Origin: Koleobacter methoxysyntrophicus
Lineage (GTDB): Bacteria; Bacillota; Thermosediminibacteria; Koleobacterales; Koleobacteraceae
Assembly (NCBI RefSeq): GCF_017301615.1
Contig: NZ_CP059066.1
Coordinates: forward strand, 2,926,888 to 2,990,887
Direction: 5' to 3'
Length of the DNA stretch: 64,000 nucleotides
Positions 32,901-57,558 of this stretch are shown here, in pieces. Every line of letters starts with the position of its first letter. Position 1 is the stretch's first letter. The notes beneath the pieces were generated by a model, which saw only the letters and a list, made by a program, of their open reading frames with translations, ran no database searches and had not been told where the DNA came from. The translations under genes were made by a program, and so were the position numbers.

Positions 32901-33262
32901 CCTTTTATCCTGTATAATTGGAATTTGAACGAATCTGAACTCAAAAGGAAATTAAATACTCTGTTTTTCTTATCCTGTATAATTGGAATTTGAACCCTTA
33001 CTGTTATGTAGCCTTTTGGCGGGTCTTTTTCATTTTTTATCCTGTATAATTGGAATTTGAACCAATCATATTTAACGTAATCTAATGTTGTCTTAGGTCT
33101 TTTTATCCTGTATATTTGGAATTTGAACCCAAAAATCTTGCGGTATGCACCTGCCGTCTGTTCAACTTTTTATCCTGTATAATTGGAATTTGAACCAGAC
33201 TTCTTCTGATGGCCGCAAATCATTATAGAAAGCTTTTTATCCTGTATAATTGGAATTTGAAC
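32901..33262 (-). CRISPR. CRISPR array 1: six repeats, five spacers
   Basis: 30-bp repeats at 32901, 32966, 33033, 33099, 33166 and 33233; spacers 35-37 bp. In crRNA orientation (minus strand) the repeat starts GTTCAAATTCCAATTATACA and ends GGATAAAAAG. It differs from array 2 by two bases. Repeats 1 and 2 are slightly degenerate in their 3' part and repeat 4 has an internal change. The right side joins a broken reverse transcriptase gene directly, without a leader. Confidence 0.95.
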
Positions 33263-36641: not shown

Positions 36642-37352
36642 TTATAATAACTGAAAATCTACATTACCCATTCCCCATGCGGTTTTTTTCCCCGCACCTA
36701 TCCAGGCGGCTGTCTCAAGCAGATAGTATATAAAAAGTCTTATATCACCGATCGCTTTGTTATCGAAAAGCATTTTTACTGAACCTACAAAACCATAAAA
36801 TGATATATCGGTATCAAGTTTGAAATTTATCTGTTTTATTTTTGTTTCTACCGGATAAATTAATGTTATCAGTTGCGAAGCGTTCAGCAGGGGCTGATGT
36901 TGCTTGCAGCTGTACCATGATGCCAGAACACTACTCCAAAAGACATAGCTGTCGAATGCGGGTACAGAGTATCGTTCAAACTTGAAACAGGTAGGCGAGG
37001 TGAATTTCAGTTTTACTCCTGCCGCATTTGATAGGTTGGGGACGGAAATATCGGATAGATATTCTATTTTACAAACTTTCAGTCCGTATTTCTCAGCTCG
37101 TTCTCTTGCGGTATTTTCGGGAACAGGAAAAATATAAACCGCTTCAAAACCTTTATCATTGAGTTTTTTTATTGCGAAGAGCTTTTTGTAAAGTTCATGC
37201 CCTTGTGAGATGACGTGCATGTCTCCAAACATTCTGTAAACAATACTGTTTGCTTCTTTAGGCGAAAGTTTCTGGTTTGTGCCGTATTTTACTTTCATTA
37301 GATTCAATCTATTGTTATATATTGTTTTGTCTAACAGAATTTCAATGGTCAT
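36642..37352 (-). CDS. cas6: Cas6-like crRNA-processing endoribonuclease
   Basis: 236 aa RAMP protein. The C-terminal half has FTSPTCFKFERY and PAFDSYVFWSSVLASWY, followed by the glycine-rich loop WIGAGKKTAWGMG (residues about 217-229), all typical of Cas6 ferredoxin-fold nucleases. A possible catalytic His is H51 or H57 (HVISQGHELY). It would cut the array transcript within repeats to give crRNAs. Overlaps csf3 by 4 bp (ATGA). Confidence 0.85.
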   Translation of the reverse strand: MTIEILLDKTIYNNRLNLMKVKYGTNQKLSPKEANSIVYRMFGDMHVISQGHELYKKLFAIKKLNDKGFEAVYIFPVPENTARERAEKYGLKVCKIEYLSDISVPNLSNAAGVKLKFTSPTCFKFERYSVPAFDSYVFWSSVLASWYSCKQHQPLLNASQLITLIYPVETKIKQINFKLDTDISFYGFVGSVKMLFDNKAIGDIRLFIYYLLETAAWIGAGKKTAWGMGNVDFQLL

Positions 37353-38077
37353 TTTTCTTTTCCCCCTTTAATTTCCAGCAGTATCTCCTGTGGCGATTTT
37401 ATCGGCCAGTACTGATGTCTGGGCGGAATGTAGCATTCTACTATTTCATTTTGCCAGTACGGCGGAGAGTATGTTGTGAAAGTTTTATTCCACCGCGGGT
37501 CCGCCTGTTTTACTTCTTCTGCTGGTATTACGCGGGAAGGATAACCATCGGGACCTGTTAATGTATAGTCGTTTTTTGATTCTGTCACGGTTATTGTGCC
37601 AATCATCCCGTAGCCGGCAGGAACTCTTACTCCAAGACCGCTGCTTTTCAGGGGTTCCAGTATTCTAGCGACTTCATACGGGTCTCCCTCAAAGTAGAAG
37701 TAGATCTCGGGAGTTTCCAGCAGTAGCAAGTAACCCGCCTTTTGGCGGTATATGCCCATACCGCTGTGCACTTTACGCTGTATGGTTGTATATCTGCTTA
37801 CGTCATCGAGCCACGATTGGGTTGATGTCCAGGCTTCTCTTCGCAGCCTGCTTTTTTTCCGGTTGATAAACATTGCTGATGCTTTGTATATTTTGTATTT
37901 TTCCCCAACCTGTTTTACGGGTATAGATATATGAGGAGCACCTGGCGCGAAATCGAAACTTCCAATTTGCTGGGCTTTCGAAAAAATCAGTATACTGTCC
38001 AGGTGCAGAGGACGGTAAGGCTTCCCGGCAGGAATCGCCAGGGGAGAAAGCATTTTAAAGGTAACTTTGTATTGCAA
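37349..38077 (-). CDS. csf3: Csf3, type IV CRISPR Cas5-like protein
   Basis: 242 aa. Starts YKVTFKMLSPLAIPAGKPYRPLHLDSIL, the N-terminal strand/loop pattern of Cas5-like Csf3 (SP-A-P...LHLD-IL), then GLGVRVPAGYGMIGTI as a glycine-rich RAMP segment and a C-terminal PPYW/PPRHQYWP region also seen in Csf3. It should cap the 5' end of the crRNA in the effector complex. It follows the degenerate end of CRISPR array 2. Confidence 0.85.
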   Translation of the reverse strand: MQYKVTFKMLSPLAIPAGKPYRPLHLDSILIFSKAQQIGSFDFAPGAPHISIPVKQVGEKYKIYKASAMFINRKKSRLRREAWTSTQSWLDDVSRYTTIQRKVHSGMGIYRQKAGYLLLLETPEIYFYFEGDPYEVARILEPLKSSGLGVRVPAGYGMIGTITVTESKNDYTLTGPDGYPSRVIPAEEVKQADPRWNKTFTTYSPPYWQNEIVECYIPPRHQYWPIKSPQEILLEIKGGKEK

Positions 38078-38133: not shown

Positions 38134-39896
38134 CTTTCTTATCCTGTATAGTTGGAATCTAACCAAGCCAACTTCTCTAAATTTGTTTTTTGAGGTTTAT
38201 TCTTCTTATCCTGTATATGGAATTTAGCCGTTGAAAGGCCGGTCGATGTTACATGTATTTTGGTTGATTTCTTATCCTGTATAGTTGGAATTTATCCTTA
38301 GTTTTATACTAAAAGCTGTTGCATAAAATTGACTTCTTATCCTGTATAGTTGGAATTTACCCTATCAGCCCGGAAAAGAGCTGCAGATACATACTCAACT
38401 TCTTATCTTGTATAGTTGGAATTTACCCGTAAGGTAAAACCTAAGTTTTTACAACCTATATAATCCATCTTCTTATCCTGTATAGTTGGAATTTGAACAC
38501 GGTAAGCAGATAGGGCATATTGTCTATATCGTATACTTCTTATCCTGTATAGTTGGAATTTGAACGAAATAGAGAAGTTAGCACTTACGAAAGGAGCGTA
38601 CTTCTTATCCTGTATAGTTGGAATTTGAACAATGGACGAAGAACATTTTTCTCCAGCGATCTTCACAGCTTCTTATCCTGTATAGTTGGAATTTGAACTT
38701 GCCAGTTACAGGGTCAAAACTGATGTATTTTCCCTTCTTATCCTGTATAGTTGGAATTTGAACCATCTACTTCTGCAAGCTTTTCACGGCTTTGGCTTCC
38801 TTCTTATCCTGTATAGTTGGAATTTGAACTTCATCAACAAGAATTAAGCCATCACGAACAGAAGACTTCTTATCCTGTATAGTTGGAATTTGAACTCGTC
38901 AATCGTGAATAATTCTTTACCACTACCTAAAGTCTTCTTATCCTGTATAGTTGGAATTTGAACTGAAGGTCGTCAACGCAACCTGCATAGAACTTATCAA
39001 CTTCTTATCCTGTATAGTTGGAATTTGAACTGAAGAAAGGGGAAAATGCGCAATATTCGTTATAGCCTTCTTATCCTGTATAGTTGGAATTTGAACTCAA
39101 TTATATTTTGCTATCAAATTTACGGGATTTCATCTTCTTATCCTGTATAGTTGGAATTTGAACGAATGTACGTTTGATAACTTTCAAATTGATGAAAACT
39201 TCTTATCCTGTATAGTTGGAATTTGAACTCTAGCTGGGAGACGGTGAAATGGCAAACATAAAAACTTCTTATCCTGTATAGTTGGAATTTGAACTTTCCT
39301 CTACAGGTTCCGATGCCTTAATAAAATCTCTCTTCTTATCCTGTATAGTTGGAATTTGAACCCTGCATCCATGCCTTTTTAATCTGGTCGATGGTCACTT
39401 CTTATCCTGTATAGTTGGAATTTGAACTAAGAAATGGAAATTACAAAATAGAGGAGGATGAATAACTTCTTATCCTGTATAGTTGGAATTTGAACTCATG
39501 TAGGATTAAGCTGTAAAGCAATAGATGCCTGCTTCTTATCCTGTATAGTTGGAATTTGAACCTTTTTCGATCCTAGCTATTATGTCCGCAATCGTTTCAC
39601 TTCTTATCCTGTATAGTTGGAATTTGAACACATCCGCAATTTCCGCAGCGATCCCGGGAGTGCCGACTTCTTATCCTGTATAGTTGGAATTTGAACTGCA
39701 GTCCCCCTCCCGGATGCATCTTCCCTCGTCAACTTCTTATCCTGTATAGTTGGAATTTGAACTTTGTTTTCAAAAAAAATTGCTTCGATTGTTTCGCCCT
39801 TCTTATCCTGTATAGTTGGAATTTGAACCAGGCCCTGAAGGACGGCCGGGCAGTATTCATCGAGGTCTTCTTATCCTGTATAGTTGGAATTTGAAC
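38134..39896 (-). CRISPR. CRISPR array 2: 27 repeats, 26 spacers
   Basis: 30-bp repeat, in crRNA orientation starting GTTCAAATTCCAACTATACA and ending GGATAAGAAG; period 65-68 bp, spacers 35-38 bp. Twenty-two repeats (38471-39896) are nearly identical; the five at the left end (38134-38430) are degenerate, with losses around GAAC. Decay at the left implies that the leader is at the right, so transcription is leftward, the same as the cas genes. Spacers all look different from each other; their targets are unknown. Confidence 0.98.
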
Positions 39897-42267: not shown

Positions 42268-43218
42268 TTACTCATCCCCTGTGTCTGATTCCTGTTTGTT
42301 TTTTGTTTTTTCGCTTTCTTTTTCTTTTGCCTGAAGCTGTTCGGGTATACCGAGTATGGTTTCTTTGATTCTGTTCCTGTTTTTTTCGAGGTATTCCCAG
42401 TACGGACCCGATTTCTGTGCCAGTTCTTCGGCAGTCAGGGTGTCTCTGTTTTCGTAATATTTCCCCTCGAATTTTCCGTGTCCCCTGGCACTGTTGCCGC
42501 CCAGCGTGCACCGGGTCAGAAATGCTTCTATGAAAGCATAAAATGCTGACTCTGTTAGAGCAGAAACCCCGTCCCGCAGTCCGAATTCGTGCAGCAACGT
42601 TGTGCCGGCTGGAATAGCTTCGTAGTAGAAAATCATCTGTCCTTTCTCTTCTTCACTTAACCCTTCTTTAGAACCTTCCAGTGCTGTTTTTGTATATCCT
42701 ACAGGATTCTGTTTTATTACCGCTATCAGTTCCGATGCGGTAATTTCGACTGAATCTATTTTTAATTCCGGATACAGTGCAGCTGTTTCTCTGACAAGCG
42801 GTACCGCGAATCTTACAATCAGGTTTGATCGAAAATAGTGCCCTCTATAAGTCCCTCCCAGCAGATCGAGAAACGGCAGAGCGCTGCGGAGGTCTTTATA
42901 CACCTGGCGGTTGGGTGGAACAGGTTTTGCATTTGAGGTTGTACCACCCGCGAAGAACAGATACAGGACATCCAGCGGTATCTCTGTATTGGGGTCAAGT
43001 TCAAGACTTTCAAAGGTTCTGGACATAAATGCCCTTCGACCCGTGCCGCGGATAGAGTTTCCCGATACAGCAGGAACTGAAATATAATTCCCAACCTCAT
43101 CGCAGTAAACGGGTATTTTTCTGATCTCTGTTACATTCGATTTTTGATCAAAATCGGGTATCAGGGCACCGTGAATTAACGAATCTTTTAACTTTAACTG
43201 CCCAATTATTCTTTTCAC
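42268..43218 (-). CDS. csf2: Csf2, type IV CRISPR Cas7-like backbone protein
   Basis: 316 aa RAMP. Residues 60-75 (VPAVSGNSIRGTGRRAF) hold the conserved Csf2/Cas7 S-GNSIRG motif, followed by LYLFFAGGTTS and LDLLGGTYRGHYFRSNL. The end has LGGNSARGHGKFEGKYY. Cas7-type subunits polymerise along the crRNA. The charged C-terminus (KEKESEKTKNKQES) is probably disordered. The gene starts 2 bp after the DUF2325 gene and is followed by recD after 2 bp. Confidence 0.9.
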   Translation of the reverse strand: MKRIIGQLKLKDSLIHGALIPDFDQKSNVTEIRKIPVYCDEVGNYISVPAVSGNSIRGTGRRAFMSRTFESLELDPNTEIPLDVLYLFFAGGTTSNAKPVPPNRQVYKDLRSALPFLDLLGGTYRGHYFRSNLIVRFAVPLVRETAALYPELKIDSVEITASELIAVIKQNPVGYTKTALEGSKEGLSEEEKGQMIFYYEAIPAGTTLLHEFGLRDGVSALTESAFYAFIEAFLTRCTLGGNSARGHGKFEGKYYENRDTLTAEELAQKSGPYWEYLEKNRNRIKETILGIPEQLQAKEKESEKTKNKQESDTGDE

Positions 43219-43219
43219 C

Positions 43220-43861
43220 TTAAAAACCTCCTTTGCAGACGGCCCATATTTGACGGGCTGCCCTGTTTATGTTTTGATTAGTTATATAGCAAACTTTTAT
43301 ATTATTTTTACGGGCAAAATTGATAAATTTGTAATAAATCCCGTGATTAAGATAAGCGGTATTGAAAACTATAAGTTTTATCTTCTGTTTGATATCGAAA
43401 TCGTAGTTTTGATTGTCCGTTTCTATTATCGTTATATCGGACAGGTGTTTTTTTATACGCTGCTGCCAGCTTGGATGGCCGCCGACAATTACTATTTCAG
43501 GCCTGTTTATGGTCTTGTGAATCTCCCCATCCGGAATATCCGGTATCTCGTCCGGCTGTGCCGAAAAAAGCGATTTCCGTAGAGTTTCCAGTTCGTTTTT
43601 GTCCTGCATAAGTTCGGCATTCTGTTTCTCCAGTTCTTTTATTGTCTTTTCCTGTTCTTTGATTTTTGCAATAAACTCTTCTCTAGCGCGTTTATATTCT
43701 TCGTCTGCCTTTTTATTTAATTTATCGATATCCTTTTTTTGTTGAAAAATCATCTGCTGCAGCTTTGTTATTTCGTTCCTGAGTTTTTCATTCTCCGTTC
43801 TGTAGGTTTCTATTTCTATAAACTGCGTTTCTTTGTTGTTTTTTAACAAAAAATTTAGCAA
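43220..43861 (-). pseudogene. C-terminal half of a DUF2325 coiled-coil gene split by the IscB element
   Basis: About 213 codons. From LLNFLLKNNKETQF the protein goes into a coiled coil (about 130 residues, TENEKLRNEITKLQQMIFQQ onward) and ends with a DUF2325-like Rossmann-type domain (EIVIVGGHPSWQQRIKK, IIETDN, LIVFNTAYLNHGIYYKFI, VCYITNQN). The matching N-terminal half is at 45425-46303. A frame start inside iscB could still allow translation of this half alone. It immediately precedes csf2. Confidence 0.85.
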
Positions 43862-43875
43862 GAAGTCTCCATCTT

Positions 43876-45183
43876 CTATAAGATGGAGATGAATTGCTGA
43901 CAAATGTAATTGTTGTTTCTGCAAATTAGACGCAGTTCTTTCGAATTAACCTGTTTGTACTTTTCTGATATCTGCAGATAATTTCCTTCTATATCTTGTA
44001 CATATACCCATTTTCCCGTGAAACCTGATATATAGCCTGTTTTATCTATCGCAGGTATATATACTTTATCCCACAAACACCAGTAATTATTATTAGTTAC
44101 GATTTTCTTTGTGTTCTTTTCGTTCCTTTTTGCATCTCTATTAGGTCTGCTTTTCCCTTTACGCGGGATCTCTTCATGCAAGCTGCGTTTCTTCTTGCGA
44201 ACTTGTCGGATATAATAACTGACTGATACCTCCTGCTTTGGTTTTATCCCCGCAATAACGATAGCATCGTTTATATGTGATTTTTCTAAATTCCATTCTT
44301 TCCGTTTCCTGCGAGTATATAGCCCAAAAGTATATTTTGTTGGCGCTATTTTCTGTAATCTGGGAACAAGATGGTCTTTTAAAACGTTCATAAACACAGT
44401 CACTCGAAAATCCCTGATTGCCGGCAAATCCTTGCCCGTAAATTCTTTGTATGATAAATCGCCTCTCCGCTTGTTGTGTTCTTTGCAGCAGCAGACAAGA
44501 TTAGTCGGATTATTTGTTCCACCCTTGCTTCTGGGTATGATATGGTCCACTGTTAGTTCGTCTGAACATTGTATATCCGGCCTCAGTCTGGCATAGTGAC
44601 ATTGATAATTGTCTCTTATCTTTATATACTCCTTGACACTGTCAAAACCTTTCATGTCGCCGTTTTGATATTCCTCTCCTTGTATATTTGGATTTATTAA
44701 CGCTTGAACATCAAATCGCGCTACTTCTACTACAATGTTCGTGATAGGTATAATTTTAGATAACTTTTTCATAATATTGTAGTGCGCATCAATTCTTGCT
44801 GCTATAGATGGCGGCAGCCAGCCATCTTTCCTTTTGCGGTTTAAAAATCTGGGTTCCCTGTAACGTGTTTTTCTGTTTCTTCTACTTCTTCTAAGCCTGC
44901 GCTTTGTTTCGATGTTTCCTTTGATGTCTTGCCTTAGTTCTACTTGCGCTTTATACACTACTCTGCCGTCATCTGTTGTCACGGCTATGCCAGTGTTCTT
45001 GCTGCCGGCGTCAATACCCGCAGTGCAACCTTGTTTGTAGCCACTGCTGCCGTACAATAACTGGATTGTGAACGGTTCGTAATTAACTATTTTTGCTTTG
45101 CCCTGTTTTAGTAATTTCCTCGCTTTTGAAGGTTTGCACGGCATGAGCGGCTTGCCGTGCTTGTTTAGAACGAACACTAACAA
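43876..45183 (-). CDS. iscB: IscB RNA-guided nuclease (Cas9 ancestor family)
   Basis: 435 aa. N-terminal PLMP domain (PLMP at 12-15), RuvC-I GIDAGS with D58, Arg-rich bridge helix (92-112), RuvC-II E153 (VVEVARF), HNH domain with D213/H214 (DHIIPRSKGG) and HNKRRGD, RuvC-III HINDA with H303/D306, and a C-terminal omega-RNA/TAM-interacting region. All catalytic residues are present. AAAGGAGG lies before the start. Guided by the omega-RNA encoded just upstream, it should cut DNA that matches the sequence flanking the element. Confidence 0.95.
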   Translation of the reverse strand: MLVFVLNKHGKPLMPCKPSKARKLLKQGKAKIVNYEPFTIQLLYGSSGYKQGCTAGIDAGSKNTGIAVTTDDGRVVYKAQVELRQDIKGNIETKRRLRRSRRNRKTRYREPRFLNRKRKDGWLPPSIAARIDAHYNIMKKLSKIIPITNIVVEVARFDVQALINPNIQGEEYQNGDMKGFDSVKEYIKIRDNYQCHYARLRPDIQCSDELTVDHIIPRSKGGTNNPTNLVCCCKEHNKRRGDLSYKEFTGKDLPAIRDFRVTVFMNVLKDHLVPRLQKIAPTKYTFGLYTRRKRKEWNLEKSHINDAIVIAGIKPKQEVSVSYYIRQVRKKKRSLHEEIPRKGKSRPNRDAKRNEKNTKKIVTNNNYWCLWDKVYIPAIDKTGYISGFTGKWVYVQDIEGNYLQISEKYKQVNSKELRLICRNNNYICQQFISIL

Positions 45184-45185
45184 AA

Positions 45186-45424
45186 AGTGTTCCTCCTTTC
45201 AGAGTTATTTGCCCATCGCCAATGTTAGACAGGCTTACGCGCGCATACCACTGCCCCTACCCGTCAGGACTGTTTAGGTTATGCACGACAGTGCCCGGAG
45301 CTTGGGCATCACCCCGGGGTGTCATAACCCGTCTAACGTAGCCCGATGGCGTTTCAGCCCCGGCTGAGGCTAGTCAACTAAGGCCTTGTGAAGCCCCCGC
45401 CTCTATAGGCGGTGGGTAGTTGAC
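45186..45424 (-). ncRNA. IscB omega-RNA (HEARO-type)
   Basis: 239 bp, GC-rich, between the left end and the iscB start. Pairings: the end hairpin CCGCC/GGCGG, CAGCC/GGCTG, a long-range GTTAGAC (near 45335) with GTCTAAC (near 45222), and inside it GGTTATG with CATAACC. This nested design upstream of an HNH gene is that of HEARO/omega-RNA. The guide should be the about 16 nt on the 5' side, in the interrupted gene: ending GAAGGCCTACTAT. Confidence 0.85.
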
Positions 45425-46303
45425 ATAGTAGGCCTTCAGGTCGTTGTAAGATTTGAGCAGATATTTGATGTGCATTGCCGCGGTGAGATATTTTGCGGCT
45501 TCCCCGGCGTTTAGGTTTTTATGCGTGATATAGTACGATCCCAGGATTTCCTCGATATCTTTGACGGTAAATTTAATTTCATCAAACAGCGCCGGGGCAG
45601 ACAGATTCTCGGCATCATACAGATATGCCAGCCCCTGTGCCAGGGAATCGAGTTCTGCATCCTTTGCCGGATTTATGTCTCTGAAGTTTTTAATTTCATA
45701 CTTTTCCTGGTATATTCGGTCTTTTAAAATTTTTATCTTTCTTTCGATCTCCCTTGAAAAATTTTTGCGGCAGAACCTGCTGCCGGTTGATATATTATAA
45801 AACTCGTCGCGTTTTCTGGTTATTTCTATAACCAGCCTTTCTGATTCTTCTGTCATTTTTTTCTTAAAAACCAGACAGAGAAAGGTTATTATATATGCAG
45901 CTGCATTGATCTTATCGTCAGGCAGTGTTATGAAGTTCTGGATTTTGTGGCTTTTTTCGATCGTTTTGTATATATCTATCCGGCCGTTTGATTCTACGAC
46001 AGCTTTGTAAATTGCCGGCCAGCCTTTTTGGGTAAGCGCAAGGACCTCTCTGGATATCCCGGGATCGGTTGTGCCGGCGCAGAGAATGCCCAGCATTTTT
46101 CGGCCGTATTCCAATCTCAGGATACTGCCTTCTGCTATAGCAGGATGGTTGTATTCACTGGACGTTTTTGCTTTTTTGTGAAAAAATGGTACGTTTTTCT
46201 TATATATACGATCAATGTCTCTTCTTATGCCTGTGTTTACCGCAAAGGCTTCCGCTATATACGGCAGCATGTTTATTCCATCTCTTTGCTCTTTTGAGGT
46301 CAT
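45425..46303 (-). pseudogene. N-terminal half of the split DUF2325 gene
   Basis: 293 codons upstream of the IscB element: PYIAEAFAVNTGIRRDIDRI, PAIAEGSILRLEYGRKMLGI, a helical middle with EITRKRDEFYNIS and a final AAMHIKYLLKSYNDLKAYY. The 16 further residues of the open frame come from the element. Joined to 43861-43220 it would make a protein of about 505 aa. Its start region is also duplicated at 50766-50850. Role unknown; its position directly upstream of csf2 makes a CRISPR-accessory role possible. Confidence 0.8.
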
Positions 46304-51454: not shown

Positions 51455-51817
51455 ATGTACGACCTTATTTCCGAATTTGAAGTTTATCTCAGGGAGAAGG
51501 ATGCAAGCCCCTTCACGGTACGCGCGTACCTTTCCCACCTGAAGAAATTTATAAAGTGGTATCGGGATACGGCCGGTGAACTGCCCGAAACAGGTGTAGT
51601 CGGTCCGCTGGATATAGCAGAATTCAAAAGACATCTTCAAAATCAGAACCAGAAACCGGCTACAATAAACAGGGCTCTGCGTTCTTTGAAAATCATATTT
51701 TTTAAATGGGCGGTGGAAAAAGGCTGTATTGCCCAGAACCCTGCCGGGGACATAAAACCCGTATCCGAAGTCAAGAGTGCTCCCAGAGCGCTGGGGAGGT
51801 ACGTAACAGCTACCTAA
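51455..51817 (+). pseudogene. Xer-type recombinase, N-terminal fragment
   Basis: 120 codons homologous to the first 120 residues of the Xer protein at 31187 (EKDASPFTVRAYLSHLKKFI, PLDIAEFKRHLQNQNQKPAT, KSAPRAL). All catalytic residues are beyond the break at about 51797, where unrelated sequence begins. It points away from restriction system 1 and lies beside the inverted-repeat cluster. Inactive, though the DNA-binding SAM-like domain could still fold. Confidence 0.9.
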
Positions 51818-52075: not shown

Positions 52076-54568
52076 ATGACCAAAGAACAAAAATTTTTAA
52101 ACGCCTTAAAAGACATATTCGTTGGAGCAAAGGTGGAAGGCGAATCCGGCTTCATAAATCTAATGAGAATTAAATCCTGCTATTTTGAAAAAGGAGTCTT
52201 TCCTCGTTTAATAGAAGATATCAATAAAGCTCTGGAACCTTTCCCAGAGTTTCGTGAAGAACTTTTTGACCGACTCTACACCTTCTTTCACCGTTACTTC
52301 AGCGAGACCGGTTCGATTTATTATCGTCACACTCCTTTACATGAGCGAGTATACGAACAGGTTTATACCGATGACCGAGATGTGATGCTTTTTTGGAAGA
52401 CTCATATGCTTTATTACGTCAAAACTGATCGCTTATTCAAGAGCATGGAAATTGAGGTGGACGGTTTTCGTTTCTTCTTCGACGTGTCCTCTTTAGAGCA
52501 TAAGAAAAATAATGAGAAGCGGGAGCTGGTTTATAGCTTTAAAGAAATACGAAGCGACGGAGCTATAATCTTTGACATTTCTTACTCCGAAAAAGGGCGA
52601 AAGACCAAGCTAGACGACATACGCAAAGGAATCAAGAATGCGCTGGGCCTGCCCCGATATACAGACCAGGTTCCCGGAGAGGAGGTGCTCGAGCGTGCCT
52701 TTCGCACATTTAAGCGCCAGAGTGAGGTAGACTACTTCATATGCAAGGACGCCCGGAAGTTTCTGCGGGAGCAGTTTGACCTATGGCTTTACCAGTACGT
52801 ATTCGAGCCTGAGTATAGAGAAGAAGGCTCCAGAGGGGGCACGATCTGGTCCGAGAAGCGGATTCGTCAACTTCAAGTGCTCAAAGACATTGCCTACAAG
52901 ATCATCGACTATATCGCACAGTTTGAGGACGAGCTGATAAGAATATGGAACAAGCCCAAGTTTGTGCTTAACAGCCACTACGTAATCACATTAGATCGAA
53001 TAATTGCTCGAGACGGCGGAACGAAATTACTGAATCGATTTCTGTCACACCATGGTATGGAAACGCAGATACAGGAGTGGCGCGACCTTGGCATAGTAGA
53101 CGACAGCTTCACGCTAGAAGACATAAAGAATAACCTTTATGATCCGCGTTACCTATACCTACCGTTAGATACGCGCCATTTCAAAGATCTGGAGCTTGAC
53201 CTGTTGTTGCTATTTGACCATTTGGACAAAGAACTAGATGGATGGTTGATCAAAAGCGAGAATTATCAGGCATTGAACACGTTGTTGCCCAAATTCCGGG
53301 AGAGTATACAGACAATTTATATTGACCCGCCGTTTAACACAGGAGATGATTTCAACTATGTCGATAGGTTTCAGGACTCTACTTGGCTTACACTCATGGA
53401 CAATCGCTTGTCATTGGCAAAACATTTCCTGAAACAAAGCGGAAGCATATTCCTACACCTCGATTGGAATGCGAACTACCTGGGCCGTTTACTGCTCGAT
53501 AAAACATTCGGAAAGAACGGCTTTGTTAATGAAATTATTTGGCGGATAGGCTGGGTCTCTGGATACAAGACGCAAGCCAAGGGTTTTGTGAGAAACCATG
53601 ACACGATCTTGTTCTATACCCCAGATGAGATACAGCATTTCTTCAAGAAGGAGGATGCAGTTATACCATATTGCTCTTTTGCAAAGGATACCATCAGTGA
53701 GCATTTGTCTCAAATCGTTGAGCAGTGGTGTATTCCAAAAGAGTCTGTAAGAACAGCAAAAGTGGTTTTCCATACCACCGACGGCACTGTATTCAAGATC
53801 GGGCTTAAGACCAAACAGGGCGAATACTACCTTGAGGACACATGGAACTGCAATGAATATGAGGAACTGCATTCAAATAAGATAAAAAGAAACGCAAAAG
53901 AATACACGCCTAATGGTTCTGAAATCACTCAGAAGCCCGAGGAATTGCTAAAAAGGGTTATTGAACTAACTACAGATGATGGTGACATAGTTTTTGATTT
54001 CTTTATGGGTTCTGCAACAACAATTGCTGTCGCACATAAACTACATAGGCGCTGGATCGGTATTGAAATGGCGGATTATTTTGAGACAGATGCCTTATAC
54101 CGAATGAAGCACGTATTAGCGGGGAGGACAATTCGAGAACCAGTAGGTATTTCTGCGCAGGTTGACTGGCAAGGTGGCGGCTTTTTCAAATACTTCGCCC
54201 TGGAGCAACACGAAGACGTCCTGCGTCGCGCCTACTATGCCGACGTCGAGCCGATATTTGTACAAACTGACCCCTACAGCCAATACGTTTTCCTTCGCGA
54301 TACCAAGATGCTGGACAACGCCCAGACCGGTGAAAAAGTAATGATGGTGGACTTAGAGAAAAACGAAATCCGAGTAGATCTTAGCAAGCTCTACGACAAC
54401 ATTGACCTTGCCGAGACGCTCTCCTGTGTCACCGGCAAATGGATACGTCGAATTTATCCTAGGCCGGACGACTCAACTCAGCCCGGCGAAGTTGAATTTG
54501 AAGATGGAACACGTGTAAATCTTACGAACCCGCCCTGGGAACTTTTCAAAACATTAATTTGGTGGTGA
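52076..54568 (+). CDS. mod: Type III-like DNA methyltransferase, Mod subunit (system 2)
   Basis: 830 aa, larger than the Mod of system 1 and not closely related. A 400-residue N-terminal extension precedes DPPFNTGDD at 417-425 and the AdoMet motif FDFFMGSATT near 640-649, so it is a beta-class N6-adenine methyltransferase. Target recognition should lie between (NEIIWRIGWVSGYKTQA, VRNHDTILFYTP). AGGAAGGGG lies before the ATG. 8 bp separate it from res. Confidence 0.93.
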   Translation: MTKEQKFLNALKDIFVGAKVEGESGFINLMRIKSCYFEKGVFPRLIEDINKALEPFPEFREELFDRLYTFFHRYFSETGSIYYRHTPLHERVYEQVYTDDRDVMLFWKTHMLYYVKTDRLFKSMEIEVDGFRFFFDVSSLEHKKNNEKRELVYSFKEIRSDGAIIFDISYSEKGRKTKLDDIRKGIKNALGLPRYTDQVPGEEVLERAFRTFKRQSEVDYFICKDARKFLREQFDLWLYQYVFEPEYREEGSRGGTIWSEKRIRQLQVLKDIAYKIIDYIAQFEDELIRIWNKPKFVLNSHYVITLDRIIARDGGTKLLNRFLSHHGMETQIQEWRDLGIVDDSFTLEDIKNNLYDPRYLYLPLDTRHFKDLELDLLLLFDHLDKELDGWLIKSENYQALNTLLPKFRESIQTIYIDPPFNTGDDFNYVDRFQDSTWLTLMDNRLSLAKHFLKQSGSIFLHLDWNANYLGRLLLDKTFGKNGFVNEIIWRIGWVSGYKTQAKGFVRNHDTILFYTPDEIQHFFKKEDAVIPYCSFAKDTISEHLSQIVEQWCIPKESVRTAKVVFHTTDGTVFKIGLKTKQGEYYLEDTWNCNEYEELHSNKIKRNAKEYTPNGSEITQKPEELLKRVIELTTDDGDIVFDFFMGSATTIAVAHKLHRRWIGIEMADYFETDALYRMKHVLAGRTIREPVGISAQVDWQGGGFFKYFALEQHEDVLRRAYYADVEPIFVQTDPYSQYVFLRDTKMLDNAQTGEKVMMVDLEKNEIRVDLSKLYDNIDLAETLSCVTGKWIRRIYPRPDDSTQPGEVEFEDGTRVNLTNPPWELFKTLIWW

Positions 54569-54576
54569 GGTAATAA

Positions 54577-57558
54577 ATGTTAAAACTACAGGACTTTTTA
54601 GCAGACATCCCATTCGAAGGGCTTCCAGCTGCCTGGACAAGCTTTGATTTATCTACTTTTTCCCAAAACAAGCATCTCTTCGACTACCAGCAGGAAGCAC
54701 TAAAATTTGCCCTGCGCGGCCTGTGGAAATATTACGAAGACTGCTGCGACTATAGACCCGGTGAATCTCAAGCTGCCGTCACAGAACGCAAAGAGCGGTT
54801 TTTTGAATGGTATCGTCACAACGGCCTCGACATCAATCTGGACATCTCGGTGGATAAGCAAAAGTCAAATATCCGCAACTTGCTAACCTACTATTATCAA
54901 ACTCAAAACGGTTGTGTTTCTTACAAACACTTCATCAATCGCATGGCCTTCTGGATGGCTACGGGCAGCGGCAAAACTCTAATTATTATTAAACTACTGG
55001 AACTACTGGCGAGGCTAGGCCGCATCGGAGAAATTCCCCAACACAATCTTCTTGTGCTCGCCCATCGCGACGATCTGCTGGAACAACTGCGCGAACACGT
55101 AAACGAATTCAATGCCAAAAACGAACTGTGTATCCGCCTGCGGGATTTGCGTGAATACCCGGAAGCAAAACGAGAGGTTGCATCTTTATTTCGTGACCGA
55201 GAAGTAACCGTATTCATCTATCGCTCTGATAATCTCAGCGACGAACAAAAAGAACGCATTGTTGATTTCCGAAACTACGACGATAACGGCCGCTGGTTTA
55301 TCCTTTTGGACGAAGCGCATAAAGGTGACAAAGAAGATTCAAAACGTCAACACATATACAGCATCTTGAGCCGCAACGGGTTTTTATTCAACTTCTCTGC
55401 TACTTTTACCGACAAGAGCGACATAATCTCCACTGCATATGACTTTAACCTGGCACGTTTTATTGAAAAAGGTTACGGCAAGCATATTGCCATCATGAAG
55501 CAGGAAAACCGAGCATTCCGGGACGAAGAAGACTACAGCGAAGATGAAAAAAAGAAAGTAGTACTCAAAACCCTACTGATGCTTGCATACATACACCGCA
55601 CCCTTGAAACGGTTCAGCGCAAAGTAGGCACTAGCGTTTACCATCGACCGCTCCTGCTGGTTTTGGTAAACTCCGTCAATACTAAGGACTCTGACCTAAA
55701 ACTTTTTTTCCAGCAGATAAAGGATATAGGAAAGGGCAAATTTGAAGCTCAGGTGTGGGAACAGGCCAAACAAGAACTGCGGCAGGAACTGACCGATGAG
55801 CCGCAACTGATGTTCGAGAAGAAAGAGTTAAAATTGGATCTGGCACTTTACGATTCATTAGAACCCGAAGACATCTTTAAAACCGTTTATAACGCCGACA
55901 ATCCCGGCGACATCGAAGTCTGGGTTCGACCCTCTAACCGTCAGGAGATGGCCTTCAAACTGAAAAATGCCAACCGACCTTTTGCCCTCATAAAGATCGG
56001 CGACATCAGTTCGTGGCTAAAAAACAAACTGGACGGGTATGATATCCTTGAGGGTTTTGAGGACGATGGATTTTTTCAGCGACTTAACGAAGATGACTCA
56101 TACATCAACATCCTTATGGGTTCCCGCTCTTTTTACGAAGGATGGGATTCAAATCGTCCCAACGTAATAACATTTATAAACATCGGCACGGGAACTGAGG
56201 CGCGCAAATTCATTTTGCAGTCAGTAGGCCGCGGTGTAAGGATTGAACCTTTGACCGGCAAGCGGAAGCGGCTGCAAAACCTGTACAACGCTGGAGACGA
56301 AAAAGCCTGTAACCTTTATCCGCAAATTAAAGACAAGGTGCTGCCTTTGGAGACTCTCTTTATATTCGGCACCAACCGAAACGCCCTGTATACAGTCATT
56401 AAAAATCTGGATTTAGAAAGTCCGACTACAGCAAGCCATTTGATAGAACTTGAAGTAAATCATGAGGCAGTGGACGGTCATATCCTGCTTGTCCCGATCT
56501 ATCACACTGCAGACCGTTCTTTGATAGAACAGGAAAAAGAAAAGATGGGAAAATTCAAGATAGCCGCCGGAGAACTGGAACTGCTCAAACAATACATAAA
56601 CTATCTTGCCGACGAAAGGTTACTGGTGGCTCTGCATAATGCATCGCCTCGCCAACTCAGGCTTCTCGGGCAGTGTATGAGTAATCAGGACGAATACTTC
56701 AACACTAGCACCGATCGATACTACGGACGCGTAGACCTGGCCATTGACCGGCTGCTTCAGTATTTTCATGTCATTCCTGAAGAATTAAAGAACTTCAAAC
56801 TGCTGGAGGAAGAAATTGACCATTTTAGGCACATAAGAGTGTTTCTTGAAGACATTACGGAGTTATACGAAAAAATCACCCGTGCAAAGGAACGCCCGAA
56901 TAAGCTGGTGGAATTGCGCCGGAAATATGATACTCGCGAACTTTCCTTCAACGAATTTATCAGGCAGATAGAATCTTTACCTGAAAGGGAAACCTTTTGC
57001 GTCAACGGCCAGAGTCTGAAGATAAAACACGTTGCTAATCACTACTATACGCCAGTGCTCATGTCCGACAGTCAAAGGATCAACTTCATTAGCCATATAA
57101 TACGACATCCCAGCGAAGTGCGATTTATTAATGATCTTGAAGAATATATAAGGCAGGATAGAAACGAATTCAGCTATTTCGACTGGTGGGTTTTCAGCAA
57201 AATCGACGAAAGTATGGATGAGGTTTACATTCCATACTTTGACCCTAATGTGAACCGCTATCGCCCCTTTTACCCGGATTTTATATTCTGGCTGAAAAAA
57301 GGCAAAGATTACTATATTGTATTTGCAGACCCGAAAGGGACAAAGCATACAGAATTTGAGTATAAAATTGATGGCTATAAAAGAATTTTTGAAAACAGTC
57401 GGGGAGAACCGTGTATCTTTTCGTACAACGGCTTTGAAGTTAGGGTATATTTGTTTTTATACACTGAAGACCGGAATCAGCTGCCTGCTGGGTATAGAAC
57501 TTACTGGATGGACAATCCAAGGACTATTGCAGAGAGAGTGAGAGGTTATACTGGATAA
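54577..57558 (+). CDS. res: Type III-like restriction enzyme, Res subunit (system 2)
   Basis: 993 aa. SF2 helicase with MATGSGKT near residue 126-133, LLDEAHKGD near 242, NFSATFTD as motif III, and SVGRGVRIEPL as motif VI. C-terminal nuclease: PDFIFWLKKGKDYYIVFADPKG (PD near 898, D-x-K near 916-919). AGGTAATAA precedes the ATG. Complete and in one operon with Mod 2. Together they would form a second restriction system with its own specificity. Confidence 0.93.
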   Translation: MLKLQDFLADIPFEGLPAAWTSFDLSTFSQNKHLFDYQQEALKFALRGLWKYYEDCCDYRPGESQAAVTERKERFFEWYRHNGLDINLDISVDKQKSNIRNLLTYYYQTQNGCVSYKHFINRMAFWMATGSGKTLIIIKLLELLARLGRIGEIPQHNLLVLAHRDDLLEQLREHVNEFNAKNELCIRLRDLREYPEAKREVASLFRDREVTVFIYRSDNLSDEQKERIVDFRNYDDNGRWFILLDEAHKGDKEDSKRQHIYSILSRNGFLFNFSATFTDKSDIISTAYDFNLARFIEKGYGKHIAIMKQENRAFRDEEDYSEDEKKKVVLKTLLMLAYIHRTLETVQRKVGTSVYHRPLLLVLVNSVNTKDSDLKLFFQQIKDIGKGKFEAQVWEQAKQELRQELTDEPQLMFEKKELKLDLALYDSLEPEDIFKTVYNADNPGDIEVWVRPSNRQEMAFKLKNANRPFALIKIGDISSWLKNKLDGYDILEGFEDDGFFQRLNEDDSYINILMGSRSFYEGWDSNRPNVITFINIGTGTEARKFILQSVGRGVRIEPLTGKRKRLQNLYNAGDEKACNLYPQIKDKVLPLETLFIFGTNRNALYTVIKNLDLESPTTASHLIELEVNHEAVDGHILLVPIYHTADRSLIEQEKEKMGKFKIAAGELELLKQYINYLADERLLVALHNASPRQLRLLGQCMSNQDEYFNTSTDRYYGRVDLAIDRLLQYFHVIPEELKNFKLLEEEIDHFRHIRVFLEDITELYEKITRAKERPNKLVELRRKYDTRELSFNEFIRQIESLPERETFCVNGQSLKIKHVANHYYTPVLMSDSQRINFISHIIRHPSEVRFINDLEEYIRQDRNEFSYFDWWVFSKIDESMDEVYIPYFDPNVNRYRPFYPDFIFWLKKGKDYYIVFADPKGTKHTEFEYKIDGYKRIFENSRGEPCIFSYNGFEVRVYLFLYTEDRNQLPAGYRTYWMDNPRTIAERVRGYTG

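What the first reader, a model, noticed from the sequence alone, without database searches (positions are those of the whole stretch)
43220..46303. IscB element precisely splits a DUF2325 gene next to the type IV-D operon
Removing 43862-45424 restores an open frame of about 505 codons (KAYY joined to LLNFLL), with no target duplication. The rebuilt protein has a helical N-part, coiled coil and C-terminal DUF2325 domain, and its stop is 2 bp before csf2. It could be an unrecognised accessory gene of this type IV-D locus.
Basis: partly seen in the sequence, partly recalled or inferred. Interest (0 to 1): 0.68.

Follow-up and report, generated by a model that had tools for sequence, protein, structure and literature searches.

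The report
IscB element interrupting mobile DUF2325 gene
A small RNA-guided transposable element has landed inside a gene of an uncharacterised protein family carried by plasmids, phages and defence islands; the gene happens to sit beside a type IV CRISPR operon, and its relatives are mostly found without one.

Summary
The split gene is real. Both halves match consecutive parts of one profile, phrog_11092 (positions 2-299 and 304-476 of 481), and full-length single-ORF relatives occur in many Firmicutes genomes, plasmids and phages. The insert is an IscB element with a complete HEARO/omega RNA whose first base is exactly the left end, 45424.

The proposed role, an accessory gene of type IV-D, is not supported as a rule. 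A family member lies near csf genes in 2 of 14 type IV loci examined and in 1 of 4 with recD; csf genes lie near about 1 of 39 distinct family loci outside the window. That one is a C. difficile phage-plasmid with csf1-cas11-csf2-csf3 upstream of the intact gene. The two linked members do not group in a tree. Other members adjoin R-M genes, a Cas12u1, a helicase or phage lysis genes. Best reading: mobile-element or defence-island cargo, knocked out here by IscB.

The parts
45425..46303 (-). 5' half of the phrog_11092/DUF2325 gene (helical N-part); the ORF reads on into the element to 45374
   Evidence: phrog_11092 positions 2-299, 79 bits; own profile 200.9 bits
43847..45424 (-). IscB element, corrected extent (reader: 43862-45424)
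   Evidence: left end = first base of HEARO; right end from relatives
45204..45424 (-). HEARO / omega RNA
   Evidence: RF02033, 142.4 bits, model 1-211 of 211
43876..45183 (-). iscB, 435 aa (RRXRR, HNH)
   Evidence: NCBIfam guided_IscB 353 bits; Pfam RRXRR 232 bits
43220..43846 (-). 3' half of the gene: coiled coil and C-terminal DUF2325 domain
   Evidence: phrog_11092 304-476, 65.5 bits; DUF2325 28.9 bits, below cut-off
42268..43218 (-). csf2 (type IV Cas7)
   Evidence: PADLOC 202 bits
40022..42265 (-). recD of subtype IV-D
   Evidence: PADLOC RecD_0_IVD 599 bits
38134..39898 (-). CRISPR array, repeat CTTCTTATCCTGTATAGTTGGAATTTGAAC as read on the + strand
   Evidence: sequence; 22 exact cores at 38469-39877
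37349..38077 (-). csf3 (type IV Cas5)
   Evidence: PADLOC 152 bits
36642..37352 (-). cas6 of subtype IV-D
   Evidence: PADLOC Cas6_6_IVD 135 bits
35848..36624 (-). csf1 (type IV Cas8-like)
   Evidence: PADLOC 78 bits
46379..50750 (-). type III R-M pair mod-res just upstream, same strand
   Evidence: REase_III 497 bits, MTase_III 586 bits

Best explanation
An IscB element (omega RNA plus iscB, no transposase of its own) inserted, without target duplication, into a gene of the phrog_11092/DUF2325 family and split it (shown), recently (inferred from both halves still being open and conserved). The family is cargo or backbone of Firmicutes plasmids, phage-plasmids, prophages and defence islands, not a Cas subunit; here it lies between a type III R-M pair and a type IV-D operon and is probably co-transcribed with csf2. 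Inferred mechanism: the intact protein oligomerises through its coiled coil and uses a receiver/TIR-like Rossmann domain as sensor or effector in exclusion of, or defence against, other mobile elements, alone or beside whichever defence genes it travels with. In this strain it is knocked out. The omega RNA guide, read from the gene's own codons left of the element, would direct IscB to the uninterrupted allele and so keep the element in place (inferred).
For: Halves are one protein. Full-length members in 7 of 398 phylum genomes besides the own one and on plasmids and phages. Neighbours: type II MTase and REase in G194, MTase in G362, Cas12u1 in G061, helicase in G422 and type III R-M in the window, phage tail or lysis genes in L139, L140, L091. 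Csf genes near only about 1 of 39 other family loci. Anatomy from AlphaFold. HEARO begins exactly at the left end.
Against: Exclusion or defence activity is untested; neighbours were chosen, not sampled, and no background rate was computed. Several members have no defence gene beside them (no match for one neighbour each of L088, L004, L150, L149, L084, L139, L006). The Rossmann-type match is a common fold with tied scores. Adjacency to csf2 with one base between is as close as in an operon.
Confidence: 0.5

Rival explanations
1. It is an accessory gene of type IV CRISPR systems and works with the Csf complex, as the CysH-like protein is thought to do in IV-B.
For: One base between its stop and csf2; an intact relative downstream of csf1-cas11-csf2-csf3 in a C. 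difficile phage-plasmid, a locus with no CysH-type PP-loop motif in the stretch held.
Against: Absent from 12 of 14 type IV loci and 3 of 4 with recD; the other 10 C. difficile loci have the gene without csf; linked members are not sisters.
Confidence: 0.12
2. It is an accessory gene of restriction-modification cassettes, here the third gene of the type III mod-res pair.
For: Follows mod-res on the same strand after 75 bp; follows MTase and REase in G194 and an MTase with a 252-aa ORF in G362.
Against: R-M types differ (II and III), and many members, for example on the C. difficile phage-plasmids and in L139, L140 and L091, have no R-M neighbour.
Confidence: 0.13
3. It is an upkeep gene of plasmids and phage-plasmids (replication, partition, lysogeny) with no defence role; defence neighbours only reflect mobile DNA.
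For: Fixed position beside small HTH regulators in C. difficile phage-plasmids, including phage phiCDIF1296T; lysis or tail genes beside L139, L140, L091; 75 Enterococcus plasmid records.
Against: Several chromosomal members lie among defence genes; no replication or structural family covers the protein.
Confidence: 0.22
4. The interrupted gene still works as two separate polypeptides.
For: Both halves stay open, with possible starts inside the element.
Against: No relative found is naturally split at this place; the members that are broken (L077, L086, L088) are broken elsewhere.
Confidence: 0.03

Closest known systems
phrog_11092 (unknown function; DUF2325 at the C-terminus)
   Same: Whole length, domain order and junction region match
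   Different: Interrupted by IscB; 21-37% identical to the relatives aligned
IscB / HEARO (OMEGA) elements
   Same: HEARO RNA at the left end, iscB downstream, no target duplication
   Different: Nothing essential; sits in the coding frame of a gene beside a CRISPR operon; no transposase gene in the element
Type IV-D CRISPR systems (csf1, csf2, csf3, cas6, recD)
   Same: The neighbouring operon is one
   Different: The DUF2325 gene is not part of the other recD-bearing loci read
CysH-like accessory gene of type IV-B
   Same: A non-Cas alpha/beta protein encoded next to csf genes (passages of PMC8175902)
   Different: No PP-loop motif found; sporadic linkage; long coiled coil and helical N-part

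Membership tests
phrog_11092 / DUF2325 long proteins | Profile match along the whole protein | tested here: met
   Halves at 2-299 and 304-476 of 481
phrog_11092 / DUF2325 long proteins | DUF2325 domain above Pfam's own cut-off | tested here: not met
   28.9 bits against 33.6; undoubted relatives fall below it too, so this does not remove it from phrog_11092
IscB elements | IscB protein above curated cut-off | tested here: met
   353 bits, cut-off 175
IscB elements | HEARO/omega RNA upstream, starting at the element end | tested here: met
   45204-45424, 142.4 bits, gathering score 83
IscB elements | RNA-guided DNA cleavage | not testable with these tools
   needs the bench; catalytic residues read by eye only
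Type IV-D accessory gene | Present in other type IV-D loci | tested here: not met
   0 of 3 other recD-bearing loci
Type IV accessory gene (any subtype) | Recurrent adjacency to csf genes | tested here: inconclusive
   2 of 14 loci, one being the window itself; five stretches are only 5-10.5 kb long
TIR or receiver domain | Specific fold match with functional residues | tested here: inconclusive
   Z 8-9 shared by many Rossmann-like folds

The most novel reading that the evidence does not exclude
The coiled-coil/DUF2325 protein is a shared accessory of nuclease-poor CRISPR systems on mobile elements (type IV-D here, a IV-B-like locus without CysH in C. difficile, a Cas12u1 locus in G061): a common downstream sensor or effector recruited independently several times, and silenced in this strain by IscB.
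Probability: 0.1. Interest if true: 0.75.

Novelty: new member of a known kind. Interest (0 to 1): 0.4.

Why it matters
It gives an unnamed family a clear anatomy and context: a single-gene mobile-element or defence-island protein that has at least twice ended up beside type IV csf genes. If it does work with them, it would offer an effector or sensor for systems whose action is poorly known. The insertion is also a clean natural IscB target site with a readable guide.

Tried and rejected
'Intact gene never near csf2' and 'halves are separate proteins': both rejected. Type IV-D-specific accessory: rejected as a rule. Target-site rule of the element: the left flanks of three copies share nothing obvious. 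A search for more right ends in the own genome gave no new good copy. Fold searches gave only common Rossmann-type matches; absence of a family there means nothing. PDB sequence search with the family alignment found mainly coiled coils. The genome-wide scan with the family alignment reached only 4 loci, as its seed patterns are narrow. The IV-D RecD model is no marker on its own: 321 of 398 genomes match it, nearly all far below the two true cases and presumably ordinary RecD2. The csf2 model matched 74 of 398 genomes; I used the 4 above 200 bits and read G391 besides; the other 69 were not followed. IV-D csf2 alignment in viral contigs: none. Two further family searches: 2 of 10 genomes and 14 of 82. 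Literature: DUF2325 is in 4 held papers; I read passages of two and only the listing of the others. PMC8175902, PMC10910872, PMC11656645 and PMC5786514: found passages only. The type IV survey in Nucleic Acids Research (doi gkz1197, recalled) is not held, so whether it lists this gene is unknown.

Full report
What is there. On the minus strand the order is: type III mod and res (50750-46379), 75 bp, an ORF from 46303, an IscB element, a second ORF ending at 43220, then after one base csf2, recD, a CRISPR array, csf3, cas6 and csf1. PADLOC names the RecD and Cas6 as subtype IV-D (599 and 135 bits) and Csf2, Csf3 and Csf1 as type IV (202, 152 and 78 bits).

The split gene. The ORF before the element and the ORF after it are one gene. 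phrog_11092 (481 positions, unknown function) matches the first at 2-299 and the second at 304-476. A profile built from ten relatives, without the window sequence, scores 200.9 and 158.5 bits on the halves and 365.0 on the joined protein. Full-length single-ORF members are seen in 7 of 398 genomes of the phylum, the own genome not counted among the 7 (16 of 398 have any match), on plasmids of C. difficile, Vallitalea, Paenibacillus, Jeotgalibacillus, Sporomusa and Enterococcus and in viral contigs.

The element and its ends. Rfam finds a complete HEARO RNA at 45204-45424, whose first position is exactly the left end. The same left end with other flanks occurs at two other places in the genome, one a decayed copy of the RNA plus the start of iscB. 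The right end needs a correction. Relatives read K-x-x-[YF]-[FW]-x-N-[NT]-x-E-[TV] where the joined window protein reads KAYY-LLNFL-LKNNKET; the alignment puts five residues against a gap in all four relatives. Dropping those 15 bp raises the score to 371.7 bits and closes the gap. The element is therefore most likely 43847-45424, 1,578 bp; both versions keep the frame. No target duplication is visible. Both halves remain open and conserved, which suggests a recent event (inference).

What the insertion does. IscB scores 353 bits against a cut-off of 175 and aligns with solved IscB chains; catalytic residues were read by eye only. The guide side of the omega RNA abuts the DUF2325 codons, so the guide should match the uninterrupted allele; that the element uses this to keep its place follows from what is known of such elements (recalled) and was not tested. 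The right flank with the corrected end starts TTAAAA, which fits the NWRRNA motif that I recall for one IscB; in A-rich DNA this is weak.

Is it a type IV gene? I read 14 type IV loci. A family member is near csf genes in two: the window and IMGVR_UViG_2541047343_000006, a 134-kb C. difficile element (L073; L163 is the same contig). None is found in L048, L113/L152, L114, L115, L116, L117 or L153-L158; five of these stretches are only 5-10.5 kb. Among loci with recD the count is 1 of 4 (window, L048, L114, L117). Turned round, 46 family loci were searched with the window's, G118's and L073's csf/cas sequences: only L073 and its duplicate hit; after removing duplicate contigs that I recognised, about 1 of 39. 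In the phylum sample the 3 other genomes with csf2 above 200 bits have no phrog_11092 match; with 7 family genomes in 397, no overlap is expected 95% of the time, so this does not exclude a link.

The C. difficile case. The order is csf1 (101 bits), cas11 (55), csf2 (183.5), csf3 (142), an AbrB-like ORF and the intact gene. The other 10 of the 11 C. difficile-type loci have the gene without the cassette, so there the gene belongs to the phage-plasmid and the csf cassette is the variable part. This locus shows no CysH-type PP-loop motif in the stretch held, unlike L113, L115, L116 and L153; this is a rough motif search, and by it L154-L158 lack the motif too. A tree of 24 members puts the two type IV-linked proteins apart: 2 changes, 0% of 200 bootstrap trees with one. 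Deep branches of that tree are poorly supported.

Other neighbours. G061: Cas12u1 (511 bits; the Cas12f model gives 520) and four degenerate 45-nt repeats just upstream. G194: type II MTase and REase (531 and 410 bits); G362: MTase II (381 bits); G305: HATPase protein, weak REase_II (37.5 bits). G422: a helicase with a PbeA/REase-like score of 93 bits. L091 and L140: phage amidase and holin-like ORFs, read by eye. No match for one neighbour each of L088, L004, L150, L149, L084, L139 and L006, nor for those tested of L080 and L081 beyond a weak HTH hit. Neighbours were chosen, not sampled, and there is no background rate.

Protein anatomy. The AlphaFold model of the G194 relative (pLDDT 73, pTM 0.50) has helices from 12 to 287, a long helix 289-374 that looks like a coiled coil, and an alpha/beta domain 395-487. 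The window's own domain, folded with 7 relatives, has pLDDT 81.5. Best structural matches are an uncharacterised Rossmann protein (Z 9.2, rmsd 2.5, 91 aligned), receivers (Z 8-9) and TIR domains (Z about 8), tied and typical of a common fold. G11, G12, H13, W16 and H57 are invariant in the 8 domains aligned.

Conclusion. In the held library DUF2325 occurs in four papers; the two whose passages I read concern oxidative stress and encapsulin cargo, and none of the four titles concerns CRISPR. A main type IV survey is not held.

Noticed in passing
L073 6795-9423 (IMGVR_UViG_2541047343_000006): A csf1-cas11-csf2-csf3 cassette in a C. difficile phage-plasmid, with no array or CysH-like PP-loop motif found in the stretch held.
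   Followed up: partly
L079 9047-12404 (G061): Cas12u1 gene, four degenerate repeats and a DUF2325-family gene in a row on one strand.
   Followed up: partly
window 32905-33043: A second short array (3 exact cores) with a variant of the type IV-D repeat, about 5 kb from the main array.
   Followed up: no
window 52076-57558: Two long plus-strand ORFs, divergent to the mod-res pair, that read like a second methyltransferase and helicase/restriction pair (by eye).
   Followed up: no
window 51455-51817: Fragment that reads like the N-terminal part of a tyrosine recombinase (by eye); the region may be an old mobile element.
   Followed up: no
L014, L015, L016, L017 (same genome): Other elements sharing ends with this IscB element: one with a different protein inside, one decayed copy, two with the same right-end hairpin.
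   Followed up: partly
L115, L116, L113, L153: Phage-like contigs with csf1, csf2, csf3 and CysH-like ORFs, of the IV-B kind.
   Followed up: partly
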